Below, piece after piece: positions 2,033 through 28,975 of a stretch of 33,657 nt of DNA. This DNA comes from Ruminococcus sp. (GTDB lineage Bacteria > Bacillota_A > Clostridia > Oscillospirales > Ruminococcaceae). Location of the stretch: the NCBI GenBank assembly GCA_017480485.1, contig JAFVAN010000034.1, forward strand, positions 1 to 33,657, read 5' to 3'. Each line of letters begins with the position of its first letter. Positions within the stretch are counted from its first letter, which is position 1. The notes beneath the pieces were generated by a model that saw only the letters and a program-made list of their open reading frames with translations, had not been told where the DNA came from and did not search any database. The position numbers and the translations under genes were made by a program.

Positions 2033-2290
2033 CCTCCACCATCTTTCAGTCGTGCGAATACGTCGGTGCCCCGACGGGGCAAGTCGCGTGAGCACTCGCA
2101 AGCTCGTTTACAATGATGTAAAGTGGGAGGGTTCCCTCGCGAACCAGCACCCAGCGGGAAAGCACTCACGCAAAGCCCACCGAACGGCTGCACCGCCGCC
2201 TCATCCATAAAGGCGCCCACCTCCCCTCCGGGGAGGCGCTGAGACGCTGCGTGTCCGCCCGACTGAAAGATGGTGGGGGAATTAAAAATA
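2033..2290 (+). repeat. R-B repeat, copy 1, with 17-bp terminal inverted repeats and an embedded R-C module
   Basis: The element starts with CCACCATCTTTCAGTCG (about 2037) and ends with its exact reverse complement (about 2260-2276), then GGGGGAATTAAA. The R-B core at 2186-2237 has CGGCTGCACCGCC and a 7-bp hairpin, CCTCCCC/GGGGAGG, at 2220-2236. Between the left end and the core, 2066-2145 is an R-C module in reverse orientation, so one repeat has been built into another. It fills most of the gap between the HtrA-type gene and the arabinose operon. No transposase or direct target duplication is obvious. Confidence 0.8.
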
Positions 2291-2348
2291 AAAAGCACAA
2301 AAAACAGAATTTACCTTTGGGCATTCTGCCGATATAGTTGAAAAACCC

Positions 2349-2377
2349 TTGCTTTAAAGAAATGTACATTGTATAAT
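2349..2377 (+). promoter_or_regulatory. Promoter of the arabinose operon with a palindrome in the spacer
   Basis: TTGCTT (2349-2354), a 17-bp spacer and TATAAT (2372-2377) form a good vegetative promoter. The spacer contains the perfect palindrome AATGTACATT (2361-2370), placed where a bound repressor would block RNA polymerase. Its GTAC core resembles AraR-type operators, but that link is inference. Confidence 0.75.
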
Positions 2378-2414
2378 ATAAAATGTGTAATAATGTATTC
2401 ACGGAGGCGAGATC

Positions 2415-3992
2415 ATGTCTGTTAATGAAACTATCGCGGCGGGGCGCTGCTTCCTCGGTATCGAGTTCGGCTCTACAAGAGTAAAGGCCGTGCTCTGCGG
2501 CCCCGATTCTCAGCCCGTGGCCACAGGAGCCTATGAGTGGGAAAACAGGCTCGAAAACGGCCTCTGGACCTATTCGGAGCAGGATATCCTCACCGCCCTG
2601 CGCAGCTGCTATGCCGACCTCAAGCGGGACGTAAGAGAGCGGTTTTCCGTCACCCTCACGGGCTTTGCCACTATGGGCGTCTCCGCAATGATGCACGGCT
2701 ACCTCGCCTTTGATAAGAACGACCGCCTGCTGGTGCCCTTCCGCACCTGGCGAAATACCGTCACCGCCGAGGCCGCCGAGAGGCTTACCGCCCTCTTTGG
2801 CTTCAATATCCCCCAGCGCTGGAGCATAGCGCACCTCTATCAGGCAATACTGAACAAGGAGCCCCATGTGGGCGATATCGCCCACATCAATACTCTGGCG
2901 GGCTATGTCCATTTCCTGCTGACAGGTGAGCTGGCCCTGGGCGTGGGCGACGCCTCCGGGATGTTCCCCGTTGAGGAAAGCCGATACTATAACGGAAAAA
3001 TGATGCACAGCTTTATGGAGCTGCCCGAGGTCGCGGCCTGCGGCTGGCACCTGAATTCCATCCTGCCCCGCATCGCGCTGGCTGGCGAGGAGTGCGGCAG
3101 GCTCACTGCCGATGGGGCGGCCCTCCTTGACCCCGAGGGAGACCTGAAAGCGGGCGTGCCTCTCTGTCCCCCCGAGGGCGACGCAGGCACGGGAATGACC
3201 GCCACCAACTCCGTCCGTCCCGGAACAGGCAATATCTCGGCGGGTACCTCGGTGTTCTCGATGCTGGTGCTGGAGCGGGAGCTTACGGGCTGCTATCCGG
3301 AGATCGACGTGGTCACCACCCCCGACGGCTCTCCCGTAGCAATGGTCCACTGCAACAACTGCTGCGGCGAGCTGGACTTCTGGGTAAAGCTCTTCGGGCA
3401 GTTTGCGGAGCTTGCCGGCAGCCCCGTGGATAAGGGGCGGATATACGAGCTTCTGTACACCAATGCCATGAACGCCCCCGCAGACTGCGGCGGCATCACC
3501 GCCTGCAACTTCATCTCCGGCGAGCCCGTGGCGAAGGTGGCGGAGGGCAGACCAATGTATATGCGCAGCCCCGACAGCCGCGCCGACCTCGGCTCCTTTA
3601 TGCGGGCCGAGCTCTATGCCTCTCTGGCGGCCTTGAAGCTGGGGAATGACATTTTGTTTGAAAAGGAAAAGATAACGGCCGGGCGCTTCAACTGCCACGG
3701 CGGGCTCTTCAAGGTAAGGGGCGCCGCAGCGCAGATCGCCGCCGACGGCCTCGGGACACCCACTGCGGTGATGCAGACCGCAGGAGAGGGCGGCGCCTGG
3801 GGCATGGCCCTGCTGGCGCAGTATATGGTGGAGGGCGGCGGGCTCAGCCTTGCCGACTGGCTGGAGCAGAAGGTCTTCGCGGGCCTCGAGGCCGAGGCCT
3901 ACTCTCCCGACCCTGCGGGTGCTAAGGGCTTTGCGGAATATATGAAAAGCTTTAAAACAGCCCTCGATATGGAGAGGATCATAGCATTATAG
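2415..3992 (+). CDS. FGGY-family carbohydrate kinase, probable L-ribulokinase
   Basis: A cytoplasmic sugar kinase of 525 residues, first gene of a three-gene operon with AraD and a GH43 enzyme. The N-terminal phosphate-binding loop reads LGIEFGSTRVKAVL (residues 14-27). A GDAGTG segment with D256 sits where FGGY kinases carry the catalytic base. GTGNISAGTS follows as the second phosphate motif, and near the C-terminus QTAGEGGAWGMAL matches the adenosine-binding region. Direct coupling to AraD suggests it phosphorylates L-ribulose to L-ribulose 5-phosphate; the sequence alone cannot exclude another pentulose such as xylulose. GGAGG at 2403-2407 supports the start. No arabinose isomerase gene (araA) is in the operon, so that step must be encoded elsewhere. 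Confidence 0.85.
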   Translation: MSVNETIAAGRCFLGIEFGSTRVKAVLCGPDSQPVATGAYEWENRLENGLWTYSEQDILTALRSCYADLKRDVRERFSVTLTGFATMGVSAMMHGYLAFDKNDRLLVPFRTWRNTVTAEAAERLTALFGFNIPQRWSIAHLYQAILNKEPHVGDIAHINTLAGYVHFLLTGELALGVGDASGMFPVEESRYYNGKMMHSFMELPEVAACGWHLNSILPRIALAGEECGRLTADGAALLDPEGDLKAGVPLCPPEGDAGTGMTATNSVRPGTGNISAGTSVFSMLVLERELTGCYPEIDVVTTPDGSPVAMVHCNNCCGELDFWVKLFGQFAELAGSPVDKGRIYELLYTNAMNAPADCGGITACNFISGEPVAKVAEGRPMYMRSPDSRADLGSFMRAELYASLAALKLGNDILFEKEKITAGRFNCHGGLFKVRGAAAQIAADGLGTPTAVMQTAGEGGAWGMALLAQYMVEGGGLSLADWLEQKVFAGLEAEAYSPDPAGAKGFAEYMKSFKTALDMERIIAL

Positions 3993-4013
3993 CAAAGGAA
4001 CAGGTGTGACACA

Positions 4014-4721
4014 ATGCTTGAAGAACTGAAACAAAAGGTGCTGGAGGCCAACCTTATGCTGCCGAAGCACGGGCTCGTGACCTTTACCTGGGGGAACGTG
4101 TCCGCGGTGGACAGGGAAAGGGGCCTTATGGTGATAAAGCCCTCGGGCGTCGAGTACGAGGGGATGAAGGCAGATGATATGGTGGTGGTCAGCCTTGAAA
4201 CGGGCGAGACCGTTGAGGGCAGCTACCGCCCCTCCAGCGACACCCCCACCCATCTGGAGCTTTACAGACACTTTCCCAAGCTGGGAGGTGTGTGCCACAC
4301 CCACAGCCGCTGGGCAGTGGCCTTTGCCCAAGCGGGGCGGGGCATACTGCCCATGGGTACCACCCACGCGGATTATTTTTACGGCGAGGTGCCCTGCACC
4401 CGCGCCATGACTCCCGCCGAGATCGCGGGAGAGTACGAGAAGGAAACAGGCACCGTCATCATCGAGGCCTTCGAGGGTAAGGACCCCATGGATATCCCTG
4501 CGGTGCTGGTGCGCAGCCACGGGCCCTTCACCTGGGGCAAGGACGCCTACGACGCGGTGTATCACGCGGTGGTGCTGGAGGAGGTAGCCTTTATGAACTA
4601 TCACACCCTTGGCCTCGACCCCGCGGCAGGCCCCATGCAGCAGGAGCTGCTGGATAAGCACTATCTGAGAAAGCACGGCAAGAACGCCTATTACGGCCAG
4701 ATAAAGGAGGAAGACAAATGA
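4014..4721 (+). CDS. araD: L-ribulose-5-phosphate 4-epimerase
   Basis: A 235-residue class II aldolase-like epimerase that converts L-ribulose 5-phosphate to D-xylulose 5-phosphate, feeding arabinose into the pentose phosphate pathway. The catalytic and zinc-binding residues known from E. coli AraD occur at nearly the same numbers: D76, H95 and H97 (CHTHSRW), D120 (THADYF), H169 (RSHGPF) and a Tyr pair at 226-227 (YYGQ). Length is normal for the family. It starts 21 nt after the kinase, and its last codon overlaps the GH43 start (ATGA), so the three genes are co-transcribed and probably translationally coupled. Confidence 0.95.
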
Positions 4722-6372: not shown

Positions 6373-6379
6373 ATAAGGT

Positions 6380-7199: not shown

Positions 7200-7232
7200 G
7201 TGAAGGTGAAGCTTAAAGAGAGGTGAGCACAG

Positions 7233-10776: not shown

Positions 10777-10778
10777 CT

Positions 10779-17498: not shown

Positions 17499-17527
17499 CA
17501 GAGAGCATCCTTTGTTTTGTTAGATTG

Positions 17528-17770
17528 TTCGCGGTTTGACCGATAGTTTTGTGCGTGTTTCGCGGGGTCCGCGACTTAGGGGCGCTGCCTGGACCTGCCA
17601 AGGGCTAAGGCCGCCCTTGGAACCGGCCAATTTGCCGCAGTTGTGCTGACTTTTTCACTTCATTGGCTCGACAAGCCTTCTGAGGACCCCGTTCCGCGAG
17701 GGAGTCCCCGCACATCACACCGTTGTAAACGAGCTTGCGAGTGCTCACGCGTCCTGCGCCGTGCGCGCTA
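17528..17770 (+). repeat. Composite repeat: R-D followed by R-C
   Basis: R-D runs from TTCGCGGTTTGACCGATAG (17528) to about 17688 and includes the hairpin CCAAGGGC/GCCCTTGG (17598-17620, loop TAAGGCC). R-C follows directly with TTCCGCGAGGGAG, CACATCACACCGTTG, GAGCTTGCGAGTGCTC and ACGCG. The same R-D then R-C order occurs at 28692-28975. The end of the element lies inside the phosphatidylserine decarboxylase gene: its TGA stop (17745-17747, minus) is part of the GTGCTCACGCG module. This repeat fills the whole gap up to the pullulanase gene. Confidence 0.85.
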
Positions 17771-18632
17771 GCACAGCTATTCTTTCGCCTTGGAGCACCT
17801 TTGTTTCAAAGCCCTCCTTGGTGTTCACCAGCAGGTCTTCGTCTACGACTGCCTTGCCCTTTTCCAGCAGCAGTATTATGGTGGAGCCGCCGAACTCAAA
17901 ATAGCCCTTCTCCTCGCCCTTGCGGACCGTCCTTCTGCCGTAGGGGTGCATATTGGTTATCTTGCCCACCAGTGTGGCGCCTACCTCCATCTGGATCACG
18001 TCCCCGAACTGCTTGGTCCTGATGATGCAGTATTCGCGGCAGTTCTCCTTGTAAACAGGCAGGTATTTGTTGGCGATGGGGTTCACGGTGTGCAGCACGC
18101 CGCTGATGGTCCTGTTGCGGCTCTTTTCGCCGTCGGCGCAGTAGCAGTAGCGGTGATAGTCGTCGGGAGAGAGCCTGATTATCACGGCTGTGCCCCCGTT
18201 ATACCGCTCCGCCAGCTTGGAGTCCCGCAGCAGCGAGCCCACGGTGTAGACCGAATTTTTTACTACAAATTCGCTGGAATTGGTGATCCTGTAGGCGCTC
18301 ACCTTTCCGTCCGAGGGGGCGATGAGCACGCTCTTGTCCCGGTCAACGCGCCTGCGGCCCGGCTTTATCTTTCTTACAAAGAAGTCGTTGAAGGAATAAT
18401 ACTTCCTGTTCTCGAAGTCGAAGATGTCGATGTCGTTGCGCTCGGCAAAGCGGAGCACAAAGGCAGCTGACAGGCGGCCGTCGAGGAAGAACCTCATAAG
18501 CTTTGAAAAGATCGGCAGCGAGGCTACCTTCATGGCGCATCTGCCTGCGGTGGAGCCGTAGAGCTTTGCCAGCAGCTCGTCCTGGCCCGTGGTCTGTTCA
18601 AATTCGTTTCCTTTTCTGTCCCGGTATCTCAT
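17745..18632 (-). CDS. psd: Phosphatidylserine decarboxylase
   Basis: A 295-residue pyruvoyl enzyme that turns phosphatidylserine into phosphatidylethanolamine. The self-cleavage site is GGST (248-251), where S250 becomes the pyruvoyl group of the alpha chain. D108 (PSDGKV) and H160 (DDYHRYC) complete the processing triad. The length fits the longer, type II-like group of Gram-positives. AGGAGG precedes the ATG. It is the last gene after pssA (31-nt gap). The final residues RTAQDA and the stop codon come from a dispersed R-C repeat, so the original C-terminus has been replaced or extended; the catalytic core is intact. Confidence 0.94.
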   Translation of the reverse strand: MRYRDRKGNEFEQTTGQDELLAKLYGSTAGRCAMKVASLPIFSKLMRFFLDGRLSAAFVLRFAERNDIDIFDFENRKYYSFNDFFVRKIKPGRRRVDRDKSVLIAPSDGKVSAYRITNSSEFVVKNSVYTVGSLLRDSKLAERYNGGTAVIIRLSPDDYHRYCYCADGEKSRNRTISGVLHTVNPIANKYLPVYKENCREYCIIRTKQFGDVIQMEVGATLVGKITNMHPYGRRTVRKGEEKGYFEFGGSTIILLLEKGKAVVDEDLLVNTKEGFETKVLQGERIAVLARTAQDA

Positions 18633-18663
18633 GGTGAATATTCCTCCTGTCAGATCTCGGCGC

Positions 18664-19296: not shown

Positions 19297-20480
19297 TGCT
19301 TGTCACTCCTTGATCTTACCTTTTCGACTGATTTTTTAACGGCAGTCCCCGATTTTTTAACAGCTGTTCCCACCGTGCTCTTCACGGCTGTGCCGGAGCG
19401 CTTCACGGCGGTGTTCACCACCTGAAGCCTTTCGGCGATGGGCTCCTTTTTGGCGCTGCGGCGTATGGCGATTATGTGGGCGATAAGGGTTATCACTGCC
19501 CCCACTATCAGCAGGCCGTAGAACGAGAGCCCGCGGCTCAGCAGCATTCCCGAGGTCACAAGCTCCGCGCCGAACACACCCTCAAACATCACTATGAAGC
19601 AGGCCTCGGTTATTCCCGCGGCCCCCGGCAGGGGCAGCATCTCGACGGTTATGGCTATCATGGTCTGCAGGGTGATTATGGCGATGAAGCTTGTCCCCGT
19701 GAGCCCGTAAGACTTATATACCACCCAGGTCACCGCAAACAGGAATATCCTTTGGGCGCAGGTCATAAGGAAGATGTTCCAGACCGACCTAAGGTGGGTC
19801 CTGATGTACAGGGAGCCCTCGGTATAGTTATCGCAGATGCGGTTGATCTTCTTGATGGCGCCGTCCAGCTTCTTGTGCCGCAGGATATGCAGCTTTGTCA
19901 GCAGGAAGGCCACCCTTATGGCAAAGCGCCTTGCCCACCGGGGCTTTAAGATCAGCAGCACCAGCCCGGAGATATAGGCGATATTCAGCAGAAAGCCAAC
20001 CAGCAGCAGCCACATCCACTCTCCCACGCTCTTCACCACGAACTCGTGCTCGAAGAGATAGAAGATGACGCCCAGCACCACCAGCACCGCCTTATATGCG
20101 ATGGCGATGACCAGCATCATAAGCGTTGAATAGCCAAGCTTTATGCCGTCCTTTTTCATGTAATACATCTGGGCGGGCTGGCCCCCCGAGGCCGAGGGCG
20201 TGATGTAGCTGTAGAAGAAGCCCACAAAGCTGTATTTCAGGCAGCGTATGAAGGGGGTCTTGTCGCCGAAGAGCCTTAGCATATATTTTATTATCACGGA
20301 TTCTCCCGCCACAAAGCAGAACACGAAGACGGCGCCCAATGCCAGCCACCGCTTGTCCGCTCTGTCCAGGTCGGAGATGATCGTTTCCAGCTCTGCATTC
20401 TTCAGCAGAAGGTGCAGCGTCAGATAGGCGATCAGGATTATGAACAGCACGTTCATAGCATATCCGACGATCTTCTTCAA
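19293..20480 (-). CDS. UPF0104 / lysylphosphatidylglycerol-synthase-type membrane protein (flippase-like)
   Basis: A 395-residue protein with about seven to eight membrane segments, matching the transmembrane half of MprF without the aminoacyl-transferase half. The family moves or flips lipids, but the substrate of stand-alone members is usually unknown. The start codon is TTG (20478-20480) with AGAGGA about 10 nt upstream. The C-terminal 46 residues are a cytoplasmic, very basic tail made of repeats of TAVKRSGTAVK type (about 355-385), encoded by DNA tandem repeats at about 19325-19420. Coupling to pssA and psd suggests a role in distributing phosphatidylserine or phosphatidylethanolamine between leaflets; this is inference. 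Confidence 0.8.
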   Translation of the reverse strand: MKKIVGYAMNVLFIILIAYLTLHLLLKNAELETIISDLDRADKRWLALGAVFVFCFVAGESVIIKYMLRLFGDKTPFIRCLKYSFVGFFYSYITPSASGGQPAQMYYMKKDGIKLGYSTLMMLVIAIAYKAVLVVLGVIFYLFEHEFVVKSVGEWMWLLLVGFLLNIAYISGLVLLILKPRWARRFAIRVAFLLTKLHILRHKKLDGAIKKINRICDNYTEGSLYIRTHLRSVWNIFLMTCAQRIFLFAVTWVVYKSYGLTGTSFIAIITLQTMIAITVEMLPLPGAAGITEACFIVMFEGVFGAELVTSGMLLSRGLSFYGLLIVGAVITLIAHIIAIRRSAKKEPIAERLQVVNTAVKRSGTAVKSTVGTAVKKSGTAVKKSVEKVRSRSDKQ

Positions 20481-20575
20481 ATCTTTTCTTCCTCTTTTCG
20501 TTGTGTTGCCTTTGATGTATCTTTATGGCCCCGAGCCGCTGCGCGGAGAGATCATTCCGCCCGGCTCCTTGGCGC

Positions 20576-21511
20576 TTACAGCAGCATCAGCACGGTATAG
20601 CCCAGCACCAGCTGGAGGATGACGAAGCGGGCCACCACCTGAGTGTCCGACCAGTCCTTGTTCTTTCTTACATGGTCGTGGATGGGGGTCCTTATGCCGC
20701 TCATGAAGCTCTGCTTGTGGGTCAATCTTATCACCGTGAGCTTGACAAGGCCCAAGCCGCCGTCAATTATCATCACCAGCGCGAAGGGGATGAAGAGCAG
20801 AGGCCTGCCGCTGCGCATTGCCAGCAGGGCAATGAACACTCCCACAGAGCGGGAGCCCGCGTCGCCCATCAGCAGGCGGCTGGGGTGGCAGTTGAACCAC
20901 AGATAGGCCGCCAGCACGCCCAGCATGACTATCGAGGGGAAGTAATTGGCCCAGGAGCCCGAGAACAGGAAGATGCTTACCATCGAGAGGGAGGCGCAGA
21001 GCCCGTCCACTCCGTCGGTGCAGTTCACAACATTTATGCTGCCCCAGACCAGCGCCACGCCCAGCAGGGCATAGACGGGCTTCGGCAGGTCGAGGGTGGT
21101 GCCGAAGAAGCCGATCTCGGTATCGTTATGCCAAACGAAGTTCACGGCGACACCCGCCGAGATGACAAGGTCCAGCAGGCCCTTCTTGAGCTCGCCCCAA
21201 GGCATTTTCGCGGCGTCGTCCAGATAGCCCGTGAGCATGGCGGCGAAGATGAGGGCGAGGTAGATGACATTCTCGATGCTCATTTTTGTAAAAAAGGCGC
21301 TGCAAAGCACGAAGACGGAGATAAGTATTATCCCCGCGCCCCTCGGCTTGCCCTGAGAGAGGGCGCCGTTGACAGCGAACTCTCTGCCCTGATCCTTAGG
21401 CAGGAACCCACGGAAGACAACGATGGCCGCCGCGCAGATCAAAAAGCTTGCCGCAAAGGCTATGGCAGCCAGCGGAAAGTCACAATTTTCGGCAAAAAAG
21501 CTATACAACAT
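20576..21511 (-). CDS. MraY/WecA-family glycosyl-1-phosphate transferase (MraY-like)
   Basis: A 311-residue membrane enzyme with about nine to ten membrane segments. The superfamily Mg2+ and catalytic motifs are present: D98-D99 (YLDDAAK), NCTDGVDG (163-170), MGDAGS (216-221). The late cytoplasmic loop reads TPIHDHVRKN (275-284), close to the MraY motif P-x-HHH but with Asp in the middle position. MraY loads phospho-MurNAc-pentapeptide on undecaprenyl phosphate to make lipid I. It lies outside a cell-division cluster and next to phospholipid genes, so it may be a paralogue with another sugar substrate. It has its own promoter at 21558-21586 and is 95 bp upstream of the UPF0104 gene on the same strand. 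Confidence 0.85.
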   Translation of the reverse strand: MLYSFFAENCDFPLAAIAFAASFLICAAAIVVFRGFLPKDQGREFAVNGALSQGKPRGAGIILISVFVLCSAFFTKMSIENVIYLALIFAAMLTGYLDDAAKMPWGELKKGLLDLVISAGVAVNFVWHNDTEIGFFGTTLDLPKPVYALLGVALVWGSINVVNCTDGVDGLCASLSMVSIFLFSGSWANYFPSIVMLGVLAAYLWFNCHPSRLLMGDAGSRSVGVFIALLAMRSGRPLLFIPFALVMIIDGGLGLVKLTVIRLTHKQSFMSGIRTPIHDHVRKNKDWSDTQVVARFVILQLVLGYTVLMLL

Positions 21512-21557
21512 TTTACTTCATTCCTTTAGCGCATACTATCCTACTATACAATATATT

Positions 21558-21586
21558 ATTATACACCATTTGAAGAAAAAATGCAA
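21558..21586 (-). promoter_or_regulatory. Promoter of the MraY-like / phospholipid operon
   Basis: On the minus strand TTGCAT (21581-21586), a 17-bp spacer and TATAAT (21558-21563). The same -35 version, TTGCAT, occurs before the L,D-transpeptidase gene. Confidence 0.75.
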
Positions 21587-21625
21587 ATCTATTCCTACGT
21601 TATTTTGCACAAATTTTCTTTTTAA

Positions 21626-21745
21626 ATCCCCCACCATCTTTCAATCGGGCGCTTGACAAGGTTTTTCGGGCCTCCCCGGAGGGGAGGTGGACGCCTTTGT
21701 GGATGAGGCGGCGGTGCAGCCGTTAGGAGAGTCTTTGTGCGGGTG
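21626..21745 (-). repeat. R-B repeat, copy 2
   Basis: Read on the minus strand it has CTCCTAACGGCTGCACCGCC, the hairpin CCTCCCC/GGGGAGG (21671-21687 on plus), then GATTGAAAGATGGTGGGGGA and TTTAAA. The outer end is thus the same as the right end of copy 1, with one base changed. The following stretch, 21746-21994, shows no gene and no repeat I can place. Confidence 0.75.
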
Positions 21746-21994
21746 CCCTATCAAGGCTGGTGCGGGATCTGTTTCGTCCCCAGCGGGGTGGAGCGGGCCG
21801 GAAGAAGTTGATAATTACGGTGCGAAATTGTTTTCTTAGCAGCCCCAAAGCCCACCACCTGAACAGCCAAGCCATGACCAGCTCAAACAACAGTCCCCCA
21901 AGACTACCGACCGGCTCACCGCAAAAACCCAAACAAAAGGAAAACCAGCAAGCGCCCCTTGACCTTGAAATCGCAACAAAATGCCCGACCGGGA

Positions 21995-22112
21995 GATAAG
22001 GACAGGGGAGCGCGAGGGGGAGACCTTAGGAGGGGAACTTCGCTGCTGAACGAGCCTATCAAAATGACCCGTTCCTCTCCTATGGTCTCCCCCTCGCAAC
22101 GAAAGCGCAAAA
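21995..22112 (+). repeat. R-A hairpin repeat, copy 2 (diverged, structure kept)
   Basis: Flanks match copy 1 (GATAAGG, then AGGGGAGCGCGAGGGGGA; right side CCCCCTCGCAAC), but the loop is unrelated. Both arms lack the same base pair relative to copy 1: GGGGGAGACC with GGTCTCCCCC, against GGGGGAGGACC with GGTCCTCCCCC. The stem still pairs over 22 positions with the T-T mismatch in the same place. Confidence 0.8.
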
Positions 22113-22246
22113 TGAGCAGGCCGCATAAAGTGAGGGAACGAGGAAGAACCCCTCCGTCTCGGCTGGCGCCGAGCCACCTCCCCTTCTAGATGCCAGAAAT
22201 TAGAAACTAGAAGCCAGAGAAAGGATTATAGCTTCTGGTGGGCCCC

Positions 22247-22376
22247 AGTTCCGCGAGGGAGCCTTCGCGGTCTCCACCGTTGTAAACGAGCTTGCGAGTG
22301 CTCACGCGACTTGCCCCGTCGGGGCACCGACCGAGCTTGCGAGTGCTCACGCGAATTGCGCCGTGCGCGCTAGCGA
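22247..22376 (+). repeat. R-C modular palindromic repeat, with internal duplication
   Basis: It starts GTTCCGCGAGGGAG, has CACCGTTGTAAACGAG, then the unit GAGCTTGCGAGTGCTCACGCG-type (described in two parts: GAGCTTGCGAGTGCTC and ACGCG) twice. The first unit is followed by the hairpin GCCCCGTCGGGGC and the second by AATTGCGCCGTGCGCGCTAGC. It ends 10 bp before the -35 box of the trpB leader. Confidence 0.8.
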
Positions 22377-22386
22377 AAAAAAGGGG

Positions 22387-22415
22387 TTGACAAATTGGGA
22401 GTTTGGGTGTATAAT
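22387..22415 (+). promoter_or_regulatory. Consensus promoter of the T-box/trpB transcript
   Basis: Perfect TTGACA (22387-22392), 17 bp, perfect TATAAT (22410-22415). Confidence 0.9.
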
Positions 22416-22422
22416 ATGATTA

Positions 22423-22710
22423 CTTTGAAAATATCCTAAACCGATGAAGAAGAGTAAGTAGCTTTTAGCTTCAGTTTTCAGAGAGCTGCCGTGTGCTGCG
22501 AGGCAGCAGCTGTGCTTTTAGCGAATGGACTTCCGAGGGTGACCGAAAGCCTTGTGGCAAGTAGCAGTCAACGGGTGTGCTGCTCCCGTTATCAAAGCAG
22601 GCTCGTATGTCGGTACGAGCGCCGAGCGGGCGCGTTTGCGCCAAATTGGGTGGCACCGCAGGAACCTATCCCCTGTCCCATGTTTTTTGGGATGGGGTTT
22701 TTTGTGTTTT
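22423..22710 (+). promoter_or_regulatory. tRNA-Trp-responsive T-box leader
   Basis: The leader has the AGTA element (about 22450) and a specifier loop with the triplet TGG at 22526-22528 in GAATGGAC. The T-box sequence GGGTGGCACCGC is at 22648-22659, and a terminator has arms CCCCTGTCCCA and TGGGATGGGG (22670-22697) followed by six T. The bulge TGGC (22651-22654) pairs with a tRNA ending GCCA, which fits tRNA-Trp. When uncharged tRNA-Trp binds, the antiterminator forms and trpB is expressed; when it is charged, transcription stops. Confidence 0.92.
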
Positions 22711-22779
22711 TTGTCCATCTGTGCCGCCGAATCTTTTTGCAAGGGCACTGAAAAATTTTTTAAGAAAGAGGTAATCACT

Positions 22780-24153
22780 ATGAGCAAGACCATCCCCTAC
22801 AAGATCTATCTTGAAGAAAACGAGCTGCCTAAGCAGTGGTACAACGTGCGCGCAGATATGAAAAATAAGCCCGCACCCCTGCTGAACCCCGGCACCCTGC
22901 AGCCTATGACCATTGACGAGCTCTCTCAGGTGTTCTGCCGCGAGCTGGCAGAGCAGGAGCTGGACGACACCACCCCCTATATCGACATCCCTCAGGAGAT
23001 ACAGGACTTTTACAAGATGTACCGCCCCGCACCGCTGGTAAGAGCCTACTGCCTTGAAAAGGCCCTGGGCACTCCCGCAAAGATCTACTATAAGTTCGAG
23101 GGCAACAACACCTCGGGCAGCCATAAGCTGAACTCGGCTATCGCTCAGGCCTACTACGCCAAGAAGCAGGGCCTCAAGGGCGTTACCACCGAGACAGGCG
23201 CCGGACAGTGGGGCACCGCCCTTTCCATGGCCTGCGCTTATCTGGGACTTGACTGCAAGGTCTATATGGTAAAGGTTAGCTACGAGCAGAAGCCCTTCCG
23301 CCGCGAGGTAATGCGCACCTACGGTGCAGACGTTACCCCCTCGCCCTCCAACACCACCAACATCGGCAGACAGATACTCGAGCAGTTCCCCGGCACCACC
23401 GGAAGCCTTGGCTGCGCCATCTCGGAGGCCGTTGAGGTCGCCGTTAGCACCGAGGGCTACAGATACGTTCTCGGCTCGGTGCTCTCTCAGGTACTGCTGC
23501 ACCAGTCCGTTATCGGCCTCGAGGCTATGGCAGCCTGCGACAAATACGACATCAAGCCCGACATGATAATCGGCTGCGCCGGCGGCGGCTCCAACCTTGG
23601 CGGCCTTATCTCGCCCTTCGTTGGCAGAAAGCTCCGCGGAGAGGCCGACTACGAGATCATCGCGGTAGAGCCCGCCTCCTGCCCCTCCCTGACCCGCGGC
23701 AAGTACGCCTATGACTTCTGCGACACAGGAAAGGTATGCCCCCTTGCAAAGATGTACACCTTGGGCTCCGGCTTCATACCCTCGCCCAACCACGCAGGCG
23801 GCCTGCGCTATCACGGCATGAGCAGCGTTGTTTCGCAGCTCTATGATGACGGCCTTATCACCGCCCGCAGCGTCGAGCAGACCGCGGTATTCGAGGCCGC
23901 CGAGAAGTTTGCCCGCGTAGAGGGCATCCTGCCCGCCCCCGAGAGCAGCCACGCCATCAAGGTCGCCATCGACGAGGCCCTTAAGTGCAAGGAGACAGGC
24001 GAGGAGAAGACCATTCTCTTCGGCCTGACAGGCACAGGCTACTTCGACATGGTAGCATACCAGAAGTTCAACGACGGCGAGATGTCGGACTACATCCCCA
24101 CCGACGAGCAGATCGCCGAGAGCCTTGCGAAGCTTCCTGCCGTAGACAAGTAA
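22780..24153 (+). CDS. trpB: Tryptophan synthase beta chain-like protein, TrpB2 type
   Basis: A 457-residue PLP enzyme that joins indole and serine to make tryptophan. K116 (GSHKLNS) holds the cofactor, E138 (TETGAGQWG) is the catalytic glutamate and CAGGGSN binds the PLP phosphate. The extended N-terminus with LPKQWYNV and the SHK motif mark the TrpB2 subgroup, which is longer than classical TrpB and often works without TrpA. No trpA or other trp gene is adjacent, so it may salvage free indole. The ATG at 22780 follows AAGAGG; a longer in-frame reading would run through the T-box leader and is not real. Confidence 0.94.
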   Translation: MSKTIPYKIYLEENELPKQWYNVRADMKNKPAPLLNPGTLQPMTIDELSQVFCRELAEQELDDTTPYIDIPQEIQDFYKMYRPAPLVRAYCLEKALGTPAKIYYKFEGNNTSGSHKLNSAIAQAYYAKKQGLKGVTTETGAGQWGTALSMACAYLGLDCKVYMVKVSYEQKPFRREVMRTYGADVTPSPSNTTNIGRQILEQFPGTTGSLGCAISEAVEVAVSTEGYRYVLGSVLSQVLLHQSVIGLEAMAACDKYDIKPDMIIGCAGGGSNLGGLISPFVGRKLRGEADYEIIAVEPASCPSLTRGKYAYDFCDTGKVCPLAKMYTLGSGFIPSPNHAGGLRYHGMSSVVSQLYDDGLITARSVEQTAVFEAAEKFARVEGILPAPESSHAIKVAIDEALKCKETGEEKTILFGLTGTGYFDMVAYQKFNDGEMSDYIPTDEQIAESLAKLPAVDK

Positions 24154-24169
24154 AGCACGAGCGCAATTT

Positions 24170-24250
24170 AAAGCCCCGAGCCGCACAGCGGTCCGGGGCT
24201 TTTCCGTAAAATAAAAAACCCCCAAACGGGGGTTTTTTATTTTACGGAAA
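24170..24250. terminator. Double terminator between trpB and the L,D-transpeptidase gene
   Basis: First hairpin: AAGCCCCG with CGGGGCTT, inner GCCGC/GCGGT (24170-24204). Second: a perfect 20-plus-bp stem, TTCCGTAAAATAAAAAACC then CCC, loop AAAC, and its exact complement (24202-24249). The A/T-rich arms make it work in both directions for the two convergent genes. Confidence 0.9.
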
Positions 24251-24254
24251 CACT

Positions 24255-25907
24255 TTACAGACCGAAGGGGGTCTCCTTGTCGGAGTTCTTGTCCTTGTAG
24301 TACATTACCACGGGGGTGCCGAGGGGCACGTTGTCGTAGATGTACTTGGCGCCGTTGTAGTTCATGTTTATGCAGCCATGAGAGCCCTGCCACTTGTAGA
24401 TCTCTCCGCCCAGGTAGTTGCCGCGCCACTGAGAGTCGTGCAGGCCGATGCCGCAGAGTGAAACATTGTTCCAGAAGGCGCAGGTAACATCCCAGCTGTC
24501 GCCGTCGGCGTTGGTGTCCTTCATGCGGTGGTTGGTGTCCTTGCTCCAGAGCTTGTACACGCCCGGGAGGGTTGTCCTTGCCAAAGTCGTGGTCTGGCCC
24601 GAGACGATGTCCGTCTCAAAGTCCAGCTTGCCCTCCTTGTAGTACCAGAGGTGCTGGGCCATAAGGTCGATCTCGATATAGGTCTTGCCGATGTCGTCCT
24701 TGGCGGTGCGGGCCTCCTCGACGCCCGTGTAAACAAAGTATCCGTCCTCGTAATAGATGGGGTCAACGTTCTCGATGGTCTGGCCTGCCTCAAGCATTTC
24801 AACAAGTGCGTCGCAGGTGCGCTCCTGATCTATCCACCAGCCGTATCTTGCGTCGTCGCTGTCCTCTACGGTGATGTCGCCCTGAAGGGTGGCGTGGAAT
24901 TTTCTGTCCTTGCCGAAGGTGTCGTACTTTTCCGCCAGCTTCTCAACATACTTCATGGCCTTGTCGCGGTTGGCGGAGATCTCGAAGGTCTTGGGGTCCA
25001 GCTCGATCATGTCCACCAGCTCCTGACCCTCGAGGGTCTCGGTGGTGTAGTCGAAGTCATAGGTGATCTTCATATAGGCCACGGTGTCGATAGAGTCAAC
25101 GGCCTCCTTGAAGGTGTTGTATTTGTTATCGAGGGTACCCTCATCGTCGTTTATGAGCTTTTCCAGCACTTCGTCGGTCAGGTTCCTCTGAACATAGTCG
25201 TAGCCGGAGTTGTTGATCTTGAGGTCGTAGATCTTATTGAGCTTTTCGCACTTGCTTTCCAGATCGGCCTCCTTGATCTCGGGCTCTATGTAGCAGCCCG
25301 AGGCTGCGGCCTCGCTGGTATAGGTGCCCTTGTCAAAGTTTTTGAGTACATAATCCTCAAGCTTCTGATACTCCATATCGTCGCCCTGCACCTCGGGGAC
25401 TATCTCGTAGCCGCTCTCCTCAAGGACTATCTTGGCGTCCTCGTTCTTGGCGCTGCCCCAGTCGGCGGTCTTCAGCAGGAGTATCATCTTATCGCGGTCA
25501 TAGATGGGGTCGGCCTCGAAGTAATAGTCGCTCTTGGCGGCATAGCCCATGAACCAGGACGAGGGGTCCTGCTTATCGAGTATCTCCTTGACCTTATCCT
25601 TGGAATTGTTCTTATAGTCAAAGTCGGTGAAGGGGATCTCTACCTTTGAGCCGTCCCGCTTGATGACGGTGATGACGCTGTTGTTCTCGGTCTTGTCGAA
25701 GACCTCCTGGGCCTCGGTAAGGGTCTTGCCGCTGACGTCGGTATTATTGATATAGGTATTTGGCAAAAACTTCCCCGTATATCTGGCGCGGCCAATAAAA
25801 TAGATGATGCAGGTGGCAGCAATGAGCAGCAGCAGCACGACGGCCACTATAATGACAGGGACGATGCTTTTCTTTTTCTGACTTTTTTTCTTTGTCTGTA
25901 CAGCCAT
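24255..25907 (-). CDS. L,D-transpeptidase (YkuD domain) with peptidoglycan-binding repeats
   Basis: A 550-residue membrane-anchored enzyme. It has a basic N-terminus, one membrane segment (about 16-38), and an extracellular region of about 370 residues that fits two PG_binding_4-type domains of the kind fused to Gram-positive YkuD enzymes. The YkuD domain (about 415-540) has the motif SHGCINM with active C512. It would make 3-3 cross-links in peptidoglycan or attach proteins to it. AAGGAAGG precedes the ATG. The gene stands alone between a bidirectional terminator and its own promoter. Confidence 0.92.
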   Translation of the reverse strand: MAVQTKKKSQKKKSIVPVIIVAVVLLLLIAATCIIYFIGRARYTGKFLPNTYINNTDVSGKTLTEAQEVFDKTENNSVITVIKRDGSKVEIPFTDFDYKNNSKDKVKEILDKQDPSSWFMGYAAKSDYYFEADPIYDRDKMILLLKTADWGSAKNEDAKIVLEESGYEIVPEVQGDDMEYQKLEDYVLKNFDKGTYTSEAAASGCYIEPEIKEADLESKCEKLNKIYDLKINNSGYDYVQRNLTDEVLEKLINDDEGTLDNKYNTFKEAVDSIDTVAYMKITYDFDYTTETLEGQELVDMIELDPKTFEISANRDKAMKYVEKLAEKYDTFGKDRKFHATLQGDITVEDSDDARYGWWIDQERTCDALVEMLEAGQTIENVDPIYYEDGYFVYTGVEEARTAKDDIGKTYIEIDLMAQHLWYYKEGKLDFETDIVSGQTTTLARTTLPGVYKLWSKDTNHRMKDTNADGDSWDVTCAFWNNVSLCGIGLHDSQWRGNYLGGEIYKWQGSHGCINMNYNGAKYIYDNVPLGTPVVMYYKDKNSDKETPFGL

Positions 25908-25984
25908 AATTGTCCTTCCTTTTTATATATAACGCGAGAAACGGGGCTTTTCACCCCAAGTGTACAAAAAATGTCGCTATTTTT

Positions 25985-26013
25985 ATTATAGCACAAGCAT
26001 CCGCACAATGCAA
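25985..26013 (-). promoter_or_regulatory. Promoter of the L,D-transpeptidase gene
   Basis: On the minus strand TTGCAT (26008-26013), 17 bp, TATAAT (25985-25990), with TGC directly before the -10 (extended -10). Confidence 0.7.
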
Positions 26014-26080
26014 GAGAAAAAATGCGAAAATTTTACCCTCCAAGGGCTATTCAACTTGTTAAGTGTGCTAACGAACACGG

Positions 26081-26209
26081 CGCAATTCGTGTCCCGGGAG
26101 CGGGCGCGCAATTCGCGTCCCGGGCGCGGGCGCGCAATTCGCGTGAGCGGCGGCGGAGCCGCCTCGCAACTGTGTGATGTGCGGGGGCTCCCTCGCGGAG
26201 GGCAGTCTC
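26081..26209 (-). repeat. R-C repeat with 26-bp tandem units
   Basis: On the plus strand a 26-bp unit starting CGCAATTCG and containing GTCCCGGG lies at 26081-26106 and 26107-26132, with a partial unit at 26133-26142. Then come the hairpin GGCGGAGCCGCC, CGCAACTGTGTGATGTG and CTCCCTCGCGGA. It is the mirror image of 28838-28956. No spacers separate the units, so it is not a CRISPR array. Confidence 0.85.
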
Positions 26210-26215
26210 ATTTTG

Positions 26216-26362
26216 GGGCTAGTGGCATGTTTCTGGTTTTGTGATCGGCTCCACATCGGTTTTCGCCCTGCTGGGGCTTGTGGCACGTCCCTGGCTTTGT
26301 GATCGGCTCCACATCGGTTTTTGCCCTGCTGGGGCTTCTACCACGCTCTTAGTTTTGTGTGA
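26216..26362 (+). repeat. R-E tandem repeat, 58-bp unit, two full copies and a partial third
   Basis: Units at 26216-26273 and 26274-26331 share GTGATCGGCTCCACATCGGT and GCCCTGCTGGGGCTT; the third copy decays after about 30 bp. A degenerate inverse copy is at 178-262. The remainder of the gap (26363-26627) contains a short AATTATCAACTATCAACTAT run near 26576 and no gene. Confidence 0.85.
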
Positions 26363-26627
26363 TGAACAACATTGGCGCCCTCTTTTTCTCAGGTTTTAGG
26401 GTCACTTGTGCTACGCTAAAGATTTGTGGTTTTTTCGATTATTTGATCAAGAGGTGTTAAGGAAAGATTGGTGTGCGCCTTACATCGTGCTATCAATCAG
26501 ATCCATCAACAGGGTGAAGGCTTGACCGCGCGTTTTTTAATGCGCTCCGCGAGGGGGTTTTAGGGCCTCTGCTTCTAATTATCAACTATCAACTATCAAT
26601 TATCAACTTCCTCTGTCCCCGCGCCAC

Positions 26628-26656
26628 TTTACATTTTTGGGGCGTTGTGCTATAAT
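26628..26656 (+). promoter_or_regulatory. Promoter of the potassium channel gene
   Basis: TTTACA (26628-26633), 17 bp, TATAAT (26651-26656), with TGC before the -10. The leader is about 107 nt and can fold (CCGGAGGGA with TCTCCTCCGG, about 26677-26719). I do not recognise a known riboswitch in it. Confidence 0.8.
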
Positions 26657-26769
26657 GTTCTTGACCCGAACCTGTCCGGAGGGACCGGCGCAGAGCTAAA
26701 AAGCTGCCCTCTCCTCCGGCCGCGACTTTGCAGATAACTGTGGACCAATAAAAATACGGAGGCCCTGAA

Positions 26770-27738
26770 ATGACAAGACCGGGATTTAAGAAAAGAGTTT
26801 TTGATATAATCCAGATAGGCTACCGGGGCGACGCCCCAAGCAGGTTCTTCGACCTGTTCATCTCGGCTGTGATAATGATAAACATAACCGCCATGCTGCT
26901 GGACACCTTCAGTGAGCTGGAGCGCTTCTCCCGCATCTTCGAGGTCATCGAGCTGGTGACGGTGGTGGTGTTCTGCATAGAGTATGTTCTTCGGATGTGG
27001 ACGGCGGACCTGCTTTATCCCAAGTACGGGCCCTTTGGCTCCCGGGTGCGGTTCCTGTTCTCCTGGGACGGCATCGTTGATCTGCTCACCATCCTGCCCT
27101 TCTACTTCCTTTCGGGCTTCATCGTGTTCAGGCTGCTGCGGGTGGTCAGGATATTCCGCCTTTTCAGGCTCAACGCCCAGTACGACTCCTTCAACGTCAT
27201 AACCTCGGTGCTTAAGGAGAAGCGCAACCAGATAATCTCCTCGGTGTTCATAATCCTGACGCTGATGCTGGCCTCCTCCATCGGGATGTACTCGGCGGAG
27301 CACATTGCTCAGCCCGAGGTCTTTGACAACGCCTTTTCGGGAATGTGGTGGAGCATCTCGACGCTGCTAACGGTAGGCTACGGCGATATCTACCCCATCA
27401 CGGTGGTGGGCAAGATAATGGCGATAATCATAGCCCTGCTGGGCGTGGGGGTCGTTGCTATCCCCACAGGTATCATCAGTGCGGGCTTTGTTGAGCTTTA
27501 CAGCAGGAACGAGCACTCGGACTCCCGCTTCGAGGACGTCTCGAAGATCGGCGAGATACAGATAGACGAGCACAGCGAGCTCTTGGGACTTACGGTACGG
27601 GAGGTACAGAAGAGCTTTAACATGACGGTGCTGCTCATCCTTCGGGGAGAGCTGACTGTTCTTGCGGCAGAGGCCCTGCGCCTACAGTCGGGGGACATCA
27701 TCGTGGTTCGCTCCGACAAGCTGGAAAAGACAGAATAA
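26770..27738 (+). CDS. Voltage-gated-type potassium channel with C-terminal TrkA_C-like domain
   Basis: A 322-residue channel subunit with six membrane segments. S4 (121-134) has arginines at every third position (R121, R124, R127, R130, R133). The selectivity filter TVGYGD is at 201-206 before S6. The soluble C-terminus (about 255-318) reads like a TrkA_C/RCK_C domain (HSELLGLTVREV, then LQSGDIIVV), a ligand-sensing fold that in several bacterial K+ transporters binds c-di-AMP; whether it does here is unknown. GGAGG lies 7 nt before the ATG. It is transcribed alone from the promoter at 26628. Confidence 0.92.
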   Translation: MTRPGFKKRVFDIIQIGYRGDAPSRFFDLFISAVIMINITAMLLDTFSELERFSRIFEVIELVTVVVFCIEYVLRMWTADLLYPKYGPFGSRVRFLFSWDGIVDLLTILPFYFLSGFIVFRLLRVVRIFRLFRLNAQYDSFNVITSVLKEKRNQIISSVFIILTLMLASSIGMYSAEHIAQPEVFDNAFSGMWWSISTLLTVGYGDIYPITVVGKIMAIIIALLGVGVVAIPTGIISAGFVELYSRNEHSDSRFEDVSKIGEIQIDEHSELLGLTVREVQKSFNMTVLLILRGELTVLAAEALRLQSGDIIVVRSDKLEKTE

Positions 27739-27742
27739 AGAG

Positions 27743-27784
27743 CCGAAAAAGCGTACTCCCCTGTTGGGGAGTACGCTTTTTCGG
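27743..27784. terminator. Bidirectional terminator between the K+ channel and mazF
   Basis: Perfect 19-bp stem CCGAAAAAGCGTACTCCCC (27743-27761), loop TGTT, and its exact complement. The A and T runs within the arms let it work in both directions. Confidence 0.93.
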
Positions 27785-27810
27785 CAGTAGGGTTGAACAT
27801 CGATCGCACC

Positions 27811-28167
27811 CTAACTCCTTGATGCCGAGAGCCCGAAGGATATCTCAAGGGCGGAATCCACGGCGTCCATGACGTCGCCGCCCGCCTCGCCCATGCGCTC
27901 CCGCAGGCGGCGCTTGTCTAATGTACGGATCTGCTCCAGAAGGACGATGGAATCCCGCGAGAGGCCGCAGGTGCCTGCACCGACGGTTATATGGGTAGGC
28001 AGGTCGCTTTTGGTCATCCTGCTGGTGATGGCTGCGGCGATCACGGTGGGGGAGTATTTGTTCCCCACGTCGTTCTGGACGATGAGCACGGGCCTGAGCC
28101 CGCCCTGCTCCGAGCCCACGACTGGGCTAAGGTCGGCGTAATAGATCTCGCCTCTGCGCACTGTCAT
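27811..28167 (-). CDS. mazF: MazF/EndoA-type endoribonuclease toxin
   Basis: A 118-residue PemK/MazF protein, very similar in my reading to B. subtilis EndoA (NdoA), including [20 protein letters not shown]. It would cut mRNA at a short sequence. The residues needed in EndoA, R25 and T48, are at exactly these positions. The ATG at 28167 is favoured over an in-frame GTG four codons earlier, because the AAAGGAG site would touch that GTG. No MazE/NdoAI-like antitoxin gene lies upstream: 28168-28404 contains no convincing small gene. The antitoxin must be elsewhere or the toxin is tolerated in another way. Confidence 0.93.
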
Positions 28168-28404
28168 TTTGCTGCACACTCCTTTTTTGATGTAAGATAG
28201 AGGAAGAGAAGAAGCATCCGCTGTTCCTCTTTGCTGTTATTATTGACTGCCGTCCGCTTTTTTATACGGCATTTTTAGCTGCCTCGGCGGCTCTTTTTTA
28301 TTTTATGCTGCGGGTCGGGAGGAGGTCAATTTTGCCGTCATTCTGCACAAACGGGAAGCGGCGTTTTTGTGCAAATATATGTTTTTATATTTAATGAATT
28401 CACA

Positions 28405-28451
28405 AACCCCGATTTGTTGCACGCCGACGTGCAACAAATCGGGGTTTTTTA
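28405..28451 (+). terminator. Perfect 19-bp hairpin with T run, no gene in front of it
   Basis: AACCCCGATTTGTTGCACG (28405-28423), loop CCGA, and its exact complement (28428-28446), followed by TTTT. It looks like a strong plus-strand terminator, yet the nearest upstream gene (mazF) is on the other strand. It may insulate the prophage module, or end an unseen small transcript. From 28452 to 28690 there are several short palindromes (for example GTCTCGCAGCCGAGAC and CGACTGCGGTCG) but no gene. Confidence 0.75.
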
Positions 28452-28691
28452 CCTGTTAGTGAGAGGTGTTAACGGACAGAACAAAGGCTGGTGTCTCGCA
28501 GCCGAGACCGAAGGGTTTCCCGTCGGCCCGCTGGCGGGGCGAGGCTTCGATCCATCTGACCCCGGGCAGGGGCGGCCCTCTCTTGCAGGGCACGACTGGT
28601 ACCCCCGTGCGGAGCGCCCGTTGGGGTGGGGGTTTCGCCGACTGCGGTCGGCGACCAGGGCGCTGCCCCGATTTTCGTCCGAGTTTATGCG

Positions 28692-28975
28692 AGGACAAAA
28701 TATACCTTGCCAAGGGGCTAAGGCCGCCCCTTGGATTCCGGCCAATATGCGGGTAAAGTGCTGGGTATTTCACTTTGGTTGCTCGAAGGCCTTCTGAGGG
28801 CGTTTCCCTCTTCTGAGCCCCCTCTGAGGGCCACCGTTCCGCGAGGGTGCCCCCGCACATCACACAGTTGCGAGGCGGCTCAGCCGCCGCTCACGCGAAT
28901 TGCGCGCCCGCGCCCGGGACGCGAATTGCGCGCCCACGCCCGGGACGCGAATTGCGTGGTGCACGCCGTGCACAA
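28692..28975 (+). repeat. Composite repeat: R-D followed by R-C with 26-bp tandem units
   Basis: R-D: hairpin CCAAGGGGC/GCCCCTTGG (28710-28734, loop TAAGGCC), then CCGGCCAAT, TTTCACTT and GCCTTCTGAGG. R-C from about 28838: TTCCGCGAGGGTG, CACATCACACAGTTGCGAGG, hairpin GGCGGCTCAGCCGCC, and two 26-bp units (28895-28920, 28921-28946) beginning GCGAATTGCGCGCCC, a partial unit, and the palindrome GTGCACGCCGTGCAC. It ends next to the ribosome-binding site of the terminase small subunit gene. Confidence 0.85.

What the first reader, a model, noticed from the sequence alone, without database searches (positions are those of the whole stretch)
2066..28975. R-C elements: modular palindromic cassettes with interchangeable hairpins
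Five copies (2066-2145, 17688-17770, 22247-22376, 26081-26209, 28838-28975) share a constant start (TTCCGCGAGGG, CACATCACA-GTTG) and a constant join, CTCACGCG followed in most by AATTGCG. Between these are different short palindromes: GAGCTTGCGAGTGCTC, GGCGGCTCAGCCGCC, GCCCCGTCGGGGC, GTGCACGCCGTGCAC. Some units are duplicated in tandem. The exchange of palindromes within a fixed frame resembles mosaic BIME- or REP-type repeats but I do not recognise the family. A dedicated nuclease such as a RAYT could be responsible.
Basis: partly seen in the sequence, partly recalled or inferred. Interest (0 to 1): 0.8.

Follow-up and report, generated by a model that had tools for sequence, protein, structure and literature searches.

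The report
Modular hairpin repeats that swap parts
Short hairpin-built DNA repeats scattered between the genes of an uncultured clostridial bacterium are put together from a small kit of interchangeable parts, much as the BOX repeats of pneumococcus are, and their parts differ at the same place between close relatives, but what spreads them is unknown.

Summary
Five copies share a frame (CGCGAGGG...TTG; join CTCACGCG) carrying different hairpins, far beyond chance. It is a high-copy, one-directional, modular repeat family: a sister-species MAG (G001) has at least 57 matches to one unit, and the 15 other genomes of its genus have none. Of 88 joins, 87 lead into one of five tail types. One tail, always last (17 of 17), fits an H-type pseudoknot whose two 4-bp stems both covary (98% of cells paired, 14 sequences). 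Modules are exchanged: at 17687-17776 the sister species has the same site and linker but different hairpins, and a strain contig has one extra unit at another site. Copies avoid genes (0 of 63) and are antisense between same-direction genes (16 of 18). A RAYT is not supported: no GTAG/GTGG/CGTC tag, no close inverted pairs, no Y1 transposase found in G001. They are not intrinsic terminators. Best reading: a new family of BOX-like parasitic composite repeats, moved in trans by an unidentified enzyme and reshuffled by recombination between copies. Mobilizer and function stay open.

The parts
2062..2149 (-). Copy 1: head stem CGCGAGGG (2141-2134), hairpin P2 + join CGAGCTTGCGAGTGCTCACGCG (2106-2085), linker ACTT, tail GCCCCGTCGGGGCACCGAC (2080-2062). 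Lies inside a composite of a second repeat family (D2) with 46-nt inverted ends, 83% complementary (2017-2062 / 2250-2295)
17687..17776 (+). Copy 2: head (17692-17725), P2 + join (17730-17751), linker TCCT (17752-17755), pseudoknot-like tail GCGC-C-GTGC-GCGC-TA-GCAC (17756-17774). Same site and linker but different hairpins in sister species G001 (contig C278, about 4190-4290, minus)
22244..22378 (+). Copy 3: head (22249-22282), P2 + join twice (22287-22308 and 22332-22353) with tail CCCCGTCGGGGCACCGAC between (22314-22331), last tail pseudoknot-like (22358-22376, stem 2 imperfect)
26063..26205 (-). Copy 4: head (26200-26167), hairpin P1 GGCGGCTCCGCCGCC + join (join ends 26140), two 26-nt CCCG..CGGG tail units, last tail pseudoknot-like but degenerate in stem 1 (26083-26065)
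28832..28975 (+). Copy 5: head (28837-28870), hairpin P1 GGCGGCTCAGCCGCC + join (join ends 28897), two 26-nt CCCG..CGGG tail units, last tail hairpin GTGCACGCCGTGCAC (28959-28973); ends next to the ribosome-binding site of a terminase small subunit gene (28988)

Best explanation
These are copies of a lineage-restricted, non-autonomous, modular interspersed repeat, organised like the BOX elements of pneumococcus. SHOWN: each composite reads in one direction: leader, head (CGCGAGG ... TTG), hairpin P1 or P2, join (TC[AT]CGCG), 4-nt linker, tail, and then sometimes a further head or a further hairpin+join. There are five tail types, and the pseudoknot-like tail was always last. Copies sit between genes with a strong strand preference. 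Module content differs at one fixed site between sister species and at another between strains. INFERRED: new sites are filled by a trans-acting enzyme that recognises the constant frame or the folded single strand, and that is not among those I searched for. Once in place, composites are rewritten by recombination or template switching between copies, the constant frames acting as crossover points and the hairpins as stall points. This gives tandem gain and loss and new head-hairpin pairings. Pairing in the hairpins and the pseudoknot is kept because the folded strand matters, for recognition by the mobilizer or for tolerance in transcripts. I found no sign of a host function shared across the genus.
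For: G001: 57 unit matches at E<=10 (only 40 of 88 first-look candidates were scored, so a lower bound), 54 at E<=0.001; 0 in the 15 other genus genomes. 700 kb fetched from 12 of those relatives: only two short weak BLAST hits (31 nt E 0.007, 22 nt E 0.011). Grammar: 87 of 88 joins fall into five tail classes; the pseudoknot tail is last in 17 of 17. All four head x hairpin pairings occur (30, 19, 11, 9). Module change: copy 2 versus G001 C278; L179 versus C213, 97.4% identical over 986 nt without gaps from L179's second unit on, with one more unit in L179, and C213's first unit carrying a TTTCGC-type head like L179's first unit and the P1 hairpin of its second. At the terminase leader the sister's element is at another place and on the other strand. 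Placement: 0 of 63 inside called genes; 5' neighbour pointing away 36 versus 9 (18 unknown); same-direction pairs 16 antisense versus 2 sense, p = 0.0013. Pseudoknot: 98.2% of cells paired versus 79.6% shuffled and at most 56.5% slid; 5 of 8 pairs with two-sided changes.
Against: No mobilizer identified. No clean empty site for an R-C copy, so insertion ends and target duplications are unknown. Whole-element folding is mostly unremarkable and no strand is clearly favoured (z +0.19 to -2.17 over six elements, both strands). RNAalifold draws a partly different consensus. On the head alignment the number of further standard pair types is below the shuffles (8 versus 9.0), most two-sided changes (56 of 69 cells) are the P1/P2 switch, and the outer stem has one two-sided change. 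Nearly all copies come from one MAG; exchange rests on one inter-species and one strain comparison.
Confidence: 0.62

Rival explanations
1. A REP/REPIN-like family mobilised by a RAYT: the single-stranded hairpin is cut at a tag and pasted elsewhere.
For: P1 with its surroundings (GTTGTGA-GGCGGCTTGCCGCC-GAT) looks like Pseudomonas REPs listed in PMC2817692 (passages); GTTG is in 67 of 69 units. Relatives have RAYT-like genes: PF01797 just over its cut-off, REP_Tyr_transpos below its cut-off.
Against: 0 of 69 units with GTAG/GTGG/CGTC in the 14 columns 5' of the hairpin; smallest gap between inverted neighbours 680 bp; no PF01797 in G001; another ORF in G001's ruv interval; none of the six genomes with a strong RAYT-like match has the repeat.
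Confidence: 0.1
2. A classical MITE moved by a DDE transposase that recognises terminal inverted repeats.
For: Copy 1 sits inside a D2 composite with 46-nt inverted ends, 83% complementary; many short intergenic repeats of this size are MITEs (established knowledge).
Against: By reading of the 67 listed clusters, the R-C composites have no inverted ends: leader and tails are unrelated and the 3' end varies by module.
Confidence: 0.1
3. Functional cis-acting RNA elements (mRNA processing, stability or attenuation) kept by selection on the host.
For: Two-sided covariation in the pseudoknot tail; a conserved G-U pair in the outer stem in 69 of 69 units, which on the other strand would be C-A; the last join lies within 30 nt of a facing gene's 3' end in 17 of 30 cases; a few copies directly precede a ribosome-binding site (by eye).
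Against: The set differs between sister species; absent from 15 genus genomes; between same-direction genes the element strand is antisense to the mRNA in 16 of 18.
Confidence: 0.12
4. RNA-mediated (SINE-like) copying: a structured RNA with an A-run at its 3' end.
For: 41 of 88 joins are followed by a linker and an A-run, which in a second count ends the element in 22 cases, meets a new head in 12 and a CCCG tail in 3.
Against: No reverse transcriptase (PF00078) in G001; the other tail classes have no A-run.
Confidence: 0.03
5. Ordinary intrinsic terminators.
For: GC-rich hairpins, often near gene ends.
Against: In 17500-33657, none of 19 terminator-like sites falls in the four copies there, and 19 is about the shuffle mean of 17.9 (copy 1 was not scanned). 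Shared modules in 87 of 88 joins.
Confidence: 0.02

Closest known systems
BOX elements of Streptococcus pneumoniae and S. suis (boxA-boxB(n)-boxC; PMC3049150, passages seen)
   Same: Intergenic modular composites with variable copy number of inner modules, stem-loop modules, restricted to a few related species, nested with other repeat families, length differences between strains.
   Different: GC-rich; several alternative hairpins compete for one slot; a pseudoknot-like terminal module; antisense bias relative to neighbouring genes, where the paper reports enrichment between convergent genes; no inverted ends seen. The sequences themselves were not compared.
REP/BIME/REPIN with RAYT (PMC2817692 and PMC3733652, passages seen)
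   Same: GC-rich hairpins with complementary stem changes, composites, intergenic location.
   Different: No GTAG or CGTC tag beside the main hairpin, no close inverted pairs, no RAYT found in G001, tandems direct only.
Neisserial intergenic mosaic elements, Correia and ERIC elements (named in the PMC3049150 passages; otherwise recalled)
   Same: Short mosaic or imperfectly palindromic intergenic repeats that can act when transcribed.
   Different: Correia elements have 26-bp inverted ends; none seen here. Not compared by sequence.

Membership tests
BOX-type modular repeats (as a kind) | Composite of distinct modules in a fixed order with a variable number of inner modules | tested here: met
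   87 of 88 joins in five tail classes; transitions
BOX-type modular repeats (as a kind) | Module number varies between strains at the same site | tested here: met
   one more unit in L179 than in C213 (one site, two strains)
BOX elements of streptococci (sequence family) | boxA/boxB/boxC sequences and inverted ends resembling ISSpn2 | not tested
   No box sequence was aligned; only the architecture was compared with the paper
REP (GTAG or CGTC superfamilies) | Tetranucleotide tag GTAG/GTGG or CGTC beside the palindrome | tested here: not met
   0 of 69 units in the 14 columns 5' of hairpin P1/P2; GTTG in 67, ATTG in 2. The 3' side and the tail hairpins were not tested
REPIN/BIME | Closely spaced inverted pairs of hairpin units | tested here: not met
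   9 inverted neighbour pairs, smallest gap 680 bp; tandems are direct
REP-RAYT system | Cognate RAYT gene in the genome | tested here: inconclusive
   none in G001 and another ORF in its ruv interval, but G001 is a fragmented MAG of unstated completeness and the window's genome is not held
MITE | Terminal inverted repeats | tested here: not met
   by reading of the clusters; several alternative 3' ends
MITE | Target-site duplication on insertion | tested here: inconclusive
   no clean empty site for an R-C copy
Intrinsic terminator | GC hairpin followed by a T-run | tested here: not met
   (copies 2-5; copy 1 not scanned)
Known structured RNA families | Match to an Rfam model | tested here: not met
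   window: only a T-box, next to copy 3; 5 loci, E<=0.5: one TPP riboswitch and four microRNA-type matches, all below gathering except the TPP

The most novel reading that the evidence does not exclude
A new class of mobile composite whose unit of inheritance is the module, not the element. Structured single-strand cassettes (junction head, exchangeable hairpin, pseudoknot cap) recombine through constant frames, so that each genomic site holds a reshuffled assembly; a dedicated factor recognises the frame or the cap of the folded plus strand (RNA or single-stranded DNA) and places it antisense beside gene ends.
Probability: 0.22. Interest if true: 0.82.

Novelty: new variant of a known kind. 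Interest (0 to 1): 0.57.

Why it matters
Small repeats such as BOX, REP and ERIC shape bacterial intergenic space, yet how composite ones are built and rebuilt is hardly known. Here the module vocabulary, its order rules and two cases of differing module content (between sister species, between strains) can be read directly, which makes the exchange step testable. The covarying pseudoknot-like cap is an unexpected sign that a folded strand matters. Such repeats probably also break assemblies: 27 of 58 G001 clusters lie within 400 bp of a contig end (no expectation was computed), so such families may be under-counted in uncultured bacteria.

Tried and rejected
Own-genome search: not held. RAYT as mobilizer: PF01797 in G001 and its genus (11 of 16 genomes match, G001 not), a RAYT-like protein from a relative (not in G001), then the RuvB protein to read the orthologous interval in G001. 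RuvA, RuvB and the intervening membrane-protein-like ORF were recognised by eye, not by a family search. Reverse transcriptase: none in G001. Terminators: rejected. Replication-strand explanation of the orientation bias: not supported by GC skew (12 same, 19 opposite, p = 0.28), marginal by gene-strand majority (17 versus 31, p = 0.06); not claimed. Energy-based folding: mostly unremarkable. Family-level search (396 genomes, exact pattern): G001 and one hit in G226; the reversed control hit two other genomes once each. Viral contigs: L001 and L179 only, both matching G001 contigs of the terminase region. Rfam: nothing for the element. Copy 1: I looked for its site in G001, but synteny is broken there (HtrA on C114 and the FGGY gene on C244, each followed by other repeats), so its absence is not shown. 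Copy 3: G001 has an element in the same orientation in the equivalent interval, but contig C278 ends there, so site identity is unresolved. Seven paper searches, listings only apart from three papers read in passages, showed no description of this family; several were dominated by unrelated hits, and most subscription papers are not held, so this is weak evidence of novelty. Rows dropped: the loose scan gave 67 clusters; counts use 63 after TTCCGCGAGG alone, which also hits coding DNA, and one loose P1 variant were removed as anchors. The join count dropped duplicates and joins with under 12 nt left before a contig end. My gene caller missed the terminase small subunit gene of the window, so distances at copy 5 are too large.
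Full report
CHECK. The shared pieces are far beyond chance: CGAGCTTGCGAGTGCTCACGCG occurs four times exactly against a shuffle mean of 0.00, and the frame CGCGAGGGNGCCCCCGCACATCACACNGTTG three times within three mismatches against 0.00. The constant start TTCCGCGAGGG is exact in 3 of 5 copies; by itself it is only modestly enriched. AATTGCG follows 3 of 6 joins.

WHERE IT LIVES. No genome is held for the window. The 22-mer is found in 9 stretches of genome contigs, all of one MAG, an uncultured Clostridia bacterium (SRR873595_bin.23; G001 here), and once in viral contigs. G001 is the sister species: phosphatidylserine decarboxylase is 93% identical to the window's, and the 13 other genus genomes with a match lie at 61-78%. 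One 66-nt unit has 57 matches in G001 at E<=10 and 54 at E<=0.001, with 40 of 88 first-look candidates scored, so these are lower bounds; the 15 other genus genomes have none. The exact pattern GNGCTCACGCGNNTTGCG in 396 genomes of the family hits G001 and once G226, no more than its reversed control. In 700,283 bases fetched from 12 relatives, 14-mers present four or more times occur only in G400 (91) and G397 (12) and are other sequences. BLAST of six element queries against these and other loci of relatives gave two weak hits: 31 nt of copy 5 in G398 (E 0.007) and 22 nt of the D2 repeat in G400 (E 0.011). Copy number in G001 is probably under-counted: 27 of 58 clusters lie within 400 bp of a contig end, and contig L001 runs across the gap between G001 contigs C239 and C213 through element-like sequence.

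ANATOMY. From 219.5 kb of G001 in 55 merged pieces plus the window I took 63 clusters (58 + 5) and 69 head units (64 + 5). The order is leader, head, hairpin, join, linker, tail. The head is CGCGAGG, a variable stretch, then one of two types (TCACAC-like, 39 units; the rest, mostly TTTCGC-like, 30), then GTTG in 67 and ATTG in 2. The hairpin is P1 (GGCGGC..GCCGCC, 41) or P2 (CGAGCTTGCGAGTG, 28); all four head x hairpin pairings occur (30, 19, 11, 9). The join is TC[AT]CGCG in nearly all. Of 88 joins, 87 go into five tail types: A-run 41, CCCG..CGGG 21, pseudoknot-like 12, GTACAC hairpin 10, CCCCGTCGGGG 3; one is other. In a second count with somewhat different patterns, A-run tails end the element in 22 cases, meet a new head in 12 and a CCCG tail in 3; GTACAC tails end in 9 and meet a head in 3; CCCG tails end in 9 and lead to a further hairpin+join in 13; the pseudoknot tail is last in 17 of 17. 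Hybrids of P2's 5' half and P1's 3' half (CGAGCTTGCCGCCG) also occur, in C39 and C192.

STRUCTURE. Fourteen pseudoknot-like tails were collected with a pattern that left stem 1 free and aligned as A2. With stem 1 of 4 bp, a one-base loop, stem 2 of 4 bp and T(T/C)A or TA before its partner, 98.2% of cells are paired. The shuffled mean is 79.6% and the best slid version 56.5%; five of eight pairs have changes on both sides (7 of 500 shuffles reach that), and the covariation score is 0.501 against 0.151. The pattern partly fixed stem 2, so stem 1 is the cleaner test; two nested alternatives used in turn would fit as well as a true pseudoknot. For the head unit, the outer stem CGCGAGG:TC[AT]CGCG, the TCACA/TGTGA hairpin and P1 together pair 88.2% of cells against 81.2% shuffled and at most 51.9% slid. 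However, 56 of the 69 cells with two-sided change are the P1/P2 switch, the outer stem has one, and the number of further pair types is below the shuffles. Minimum free energies of whole copies are mostly unremarkable on either strand, and RNAalifold draws a partly different consensus.

EXCHANGE. At window 17687-17776 the sister species has an element at the same site, before the same gene end and with the same linker TCCTGCG, but with a P1-type half hairpin before it and the GTACAC tail after it, where the window has P2 and the pseudoknot tail; the head is missing in G001. The insertion therefore probably predates the split while its parts do not. At the terminase leader, G001 has an element on the other strand about 400-540 bp upstream plus a D2 repeat next to the gene, whereas the window has its element at the ribosome-binding site. 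Copies 1 and 3 could not be compared cleanly. Strain contig L179 aligns with C213 over 986 nt at 97.4% without gaps, beginning in L179's second unit; upstream it has one further unit, and C213's first unit carries a TTTCGC-type head like L179's first with the P1 hairpin of its second, as if two units had recombined at GTTGTGA. The leader of the antisense element nearby also differs between the two strains.

PLACEMENT. None of 63 clusters lies inside a called gene, though some overlap a gene end by up to 37 nt (own hexamer gene caller). The 5' neighbour is transcribed away from the element in 36 of 45 cases where it could be called (p = 6.6e-5 against one half; p = 2.5e-4 against the 53% expected from intergenic gaps over 100 bp, which include those holding elements). 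Between same-direction genes 16 of 18 copies are antisense (p = 0.0013); without the window copies it is 14 of 16 (p = 0.004). When a gene's 3' end faces the element's 3' side, the median distance from the last anchor is 27 nt (30 cases). Local GC skew does not explain the bias (p = 0.28). No terminator-like site falls in the four copies scanned.

MOBILIZER. PF01797 has no match in G001, while 11 of 16 genus genomes have one. Six of the 15 other genomes have a strong match (63-99%) to a RAYT-like protein taken from one of them, and a seventh a partial 34% match. In the two loci read it lies between genes I recognise as ruvA and ruvB. It passes the PF01797 cut-off but scores below that of REP_Tyr_transpos. 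In G001 that interval holds another, membrane-protein-like ORF. None of the six genomes has the repeat. Reverse transcriptase is also absent from G001. I therefore leave the mobilizer open.

COMPARISON AND VERDICT. The nearest kind is the BOX element (PMC3049150, passages): modular, intergenic, lineage-restricted, variable in inner modules, nested with other repeats. Two defining REP features were tested and not met. I class this as a new variant of a known kind: a new family of BOX-like composites with exchangeable hairpins and a covarying pseudoknot-like cap. Most likely it is a parasitic composite repeat reshuffled by recombination. Function and mobilizer are inferred, not shown.

Noticed in passing
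window 2172-2245, 21670-21727, 31116-31189, 31357-31430; inverted ends 2017-2062 / 2250-2295: A second, separate high-copy repeat family (D2; CCTCCCCGGAGGGGAGG core, in G001 also CGCCCTCTAAGGGCG); dozens of matches in G001. It lies between terminase and portal genes in the window, and also directly upstream of terminase in G001.
   Followed up: partly
window 42-129, 22012-22097, 30880-30950: A third family: long inverted repeats around GCGAGGGGGAG(G)ACC; similar sequence in G001 contigs C114 and C301.
   Followed up: no
window 17605-17640, 28709-28746, 33517-33554: A fourth repeat (CCAAGGGGCTAAGGCCGCCCCTTGG...CCGGCCAAT), just upstream of copies 2 and 5, and upstream of elements in G001 C252 and in L179.
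   Followed up: no
window 26214-26329: Two tandem 58-nt units, 90% alike, next to copy 4.
   Followed up: no
window 27811-28179: PemK/MazF-type toxin gene, in the 2.6-kb interval between the inverted copies 4 and 5.
   Followed up: no
window 28988-33483: Terminase small and large subunit genes and a portal-like gene (below the Pfam cut-off) with repeats between them: a prophage-like region present in the sister species too.
   Followed up: partly
window 22387-22683: A full-consensus promoter-like site (TTGACA-17-TATAAT) and a T-box leader directly after copy 3, upstream of a PLP-dependent enzyme gene.
   Followed up: no
L125:1312-1875 and L126:1417-1977: RAYT-like gene between ruvA- and ruvB-like genes in two relatives, with two internal palindromes (GGCGGCTATTAGCCGCC, GGCGGCTGATAGCCGCC and the like) inside the coding sequence in both.
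   Followed up: partly
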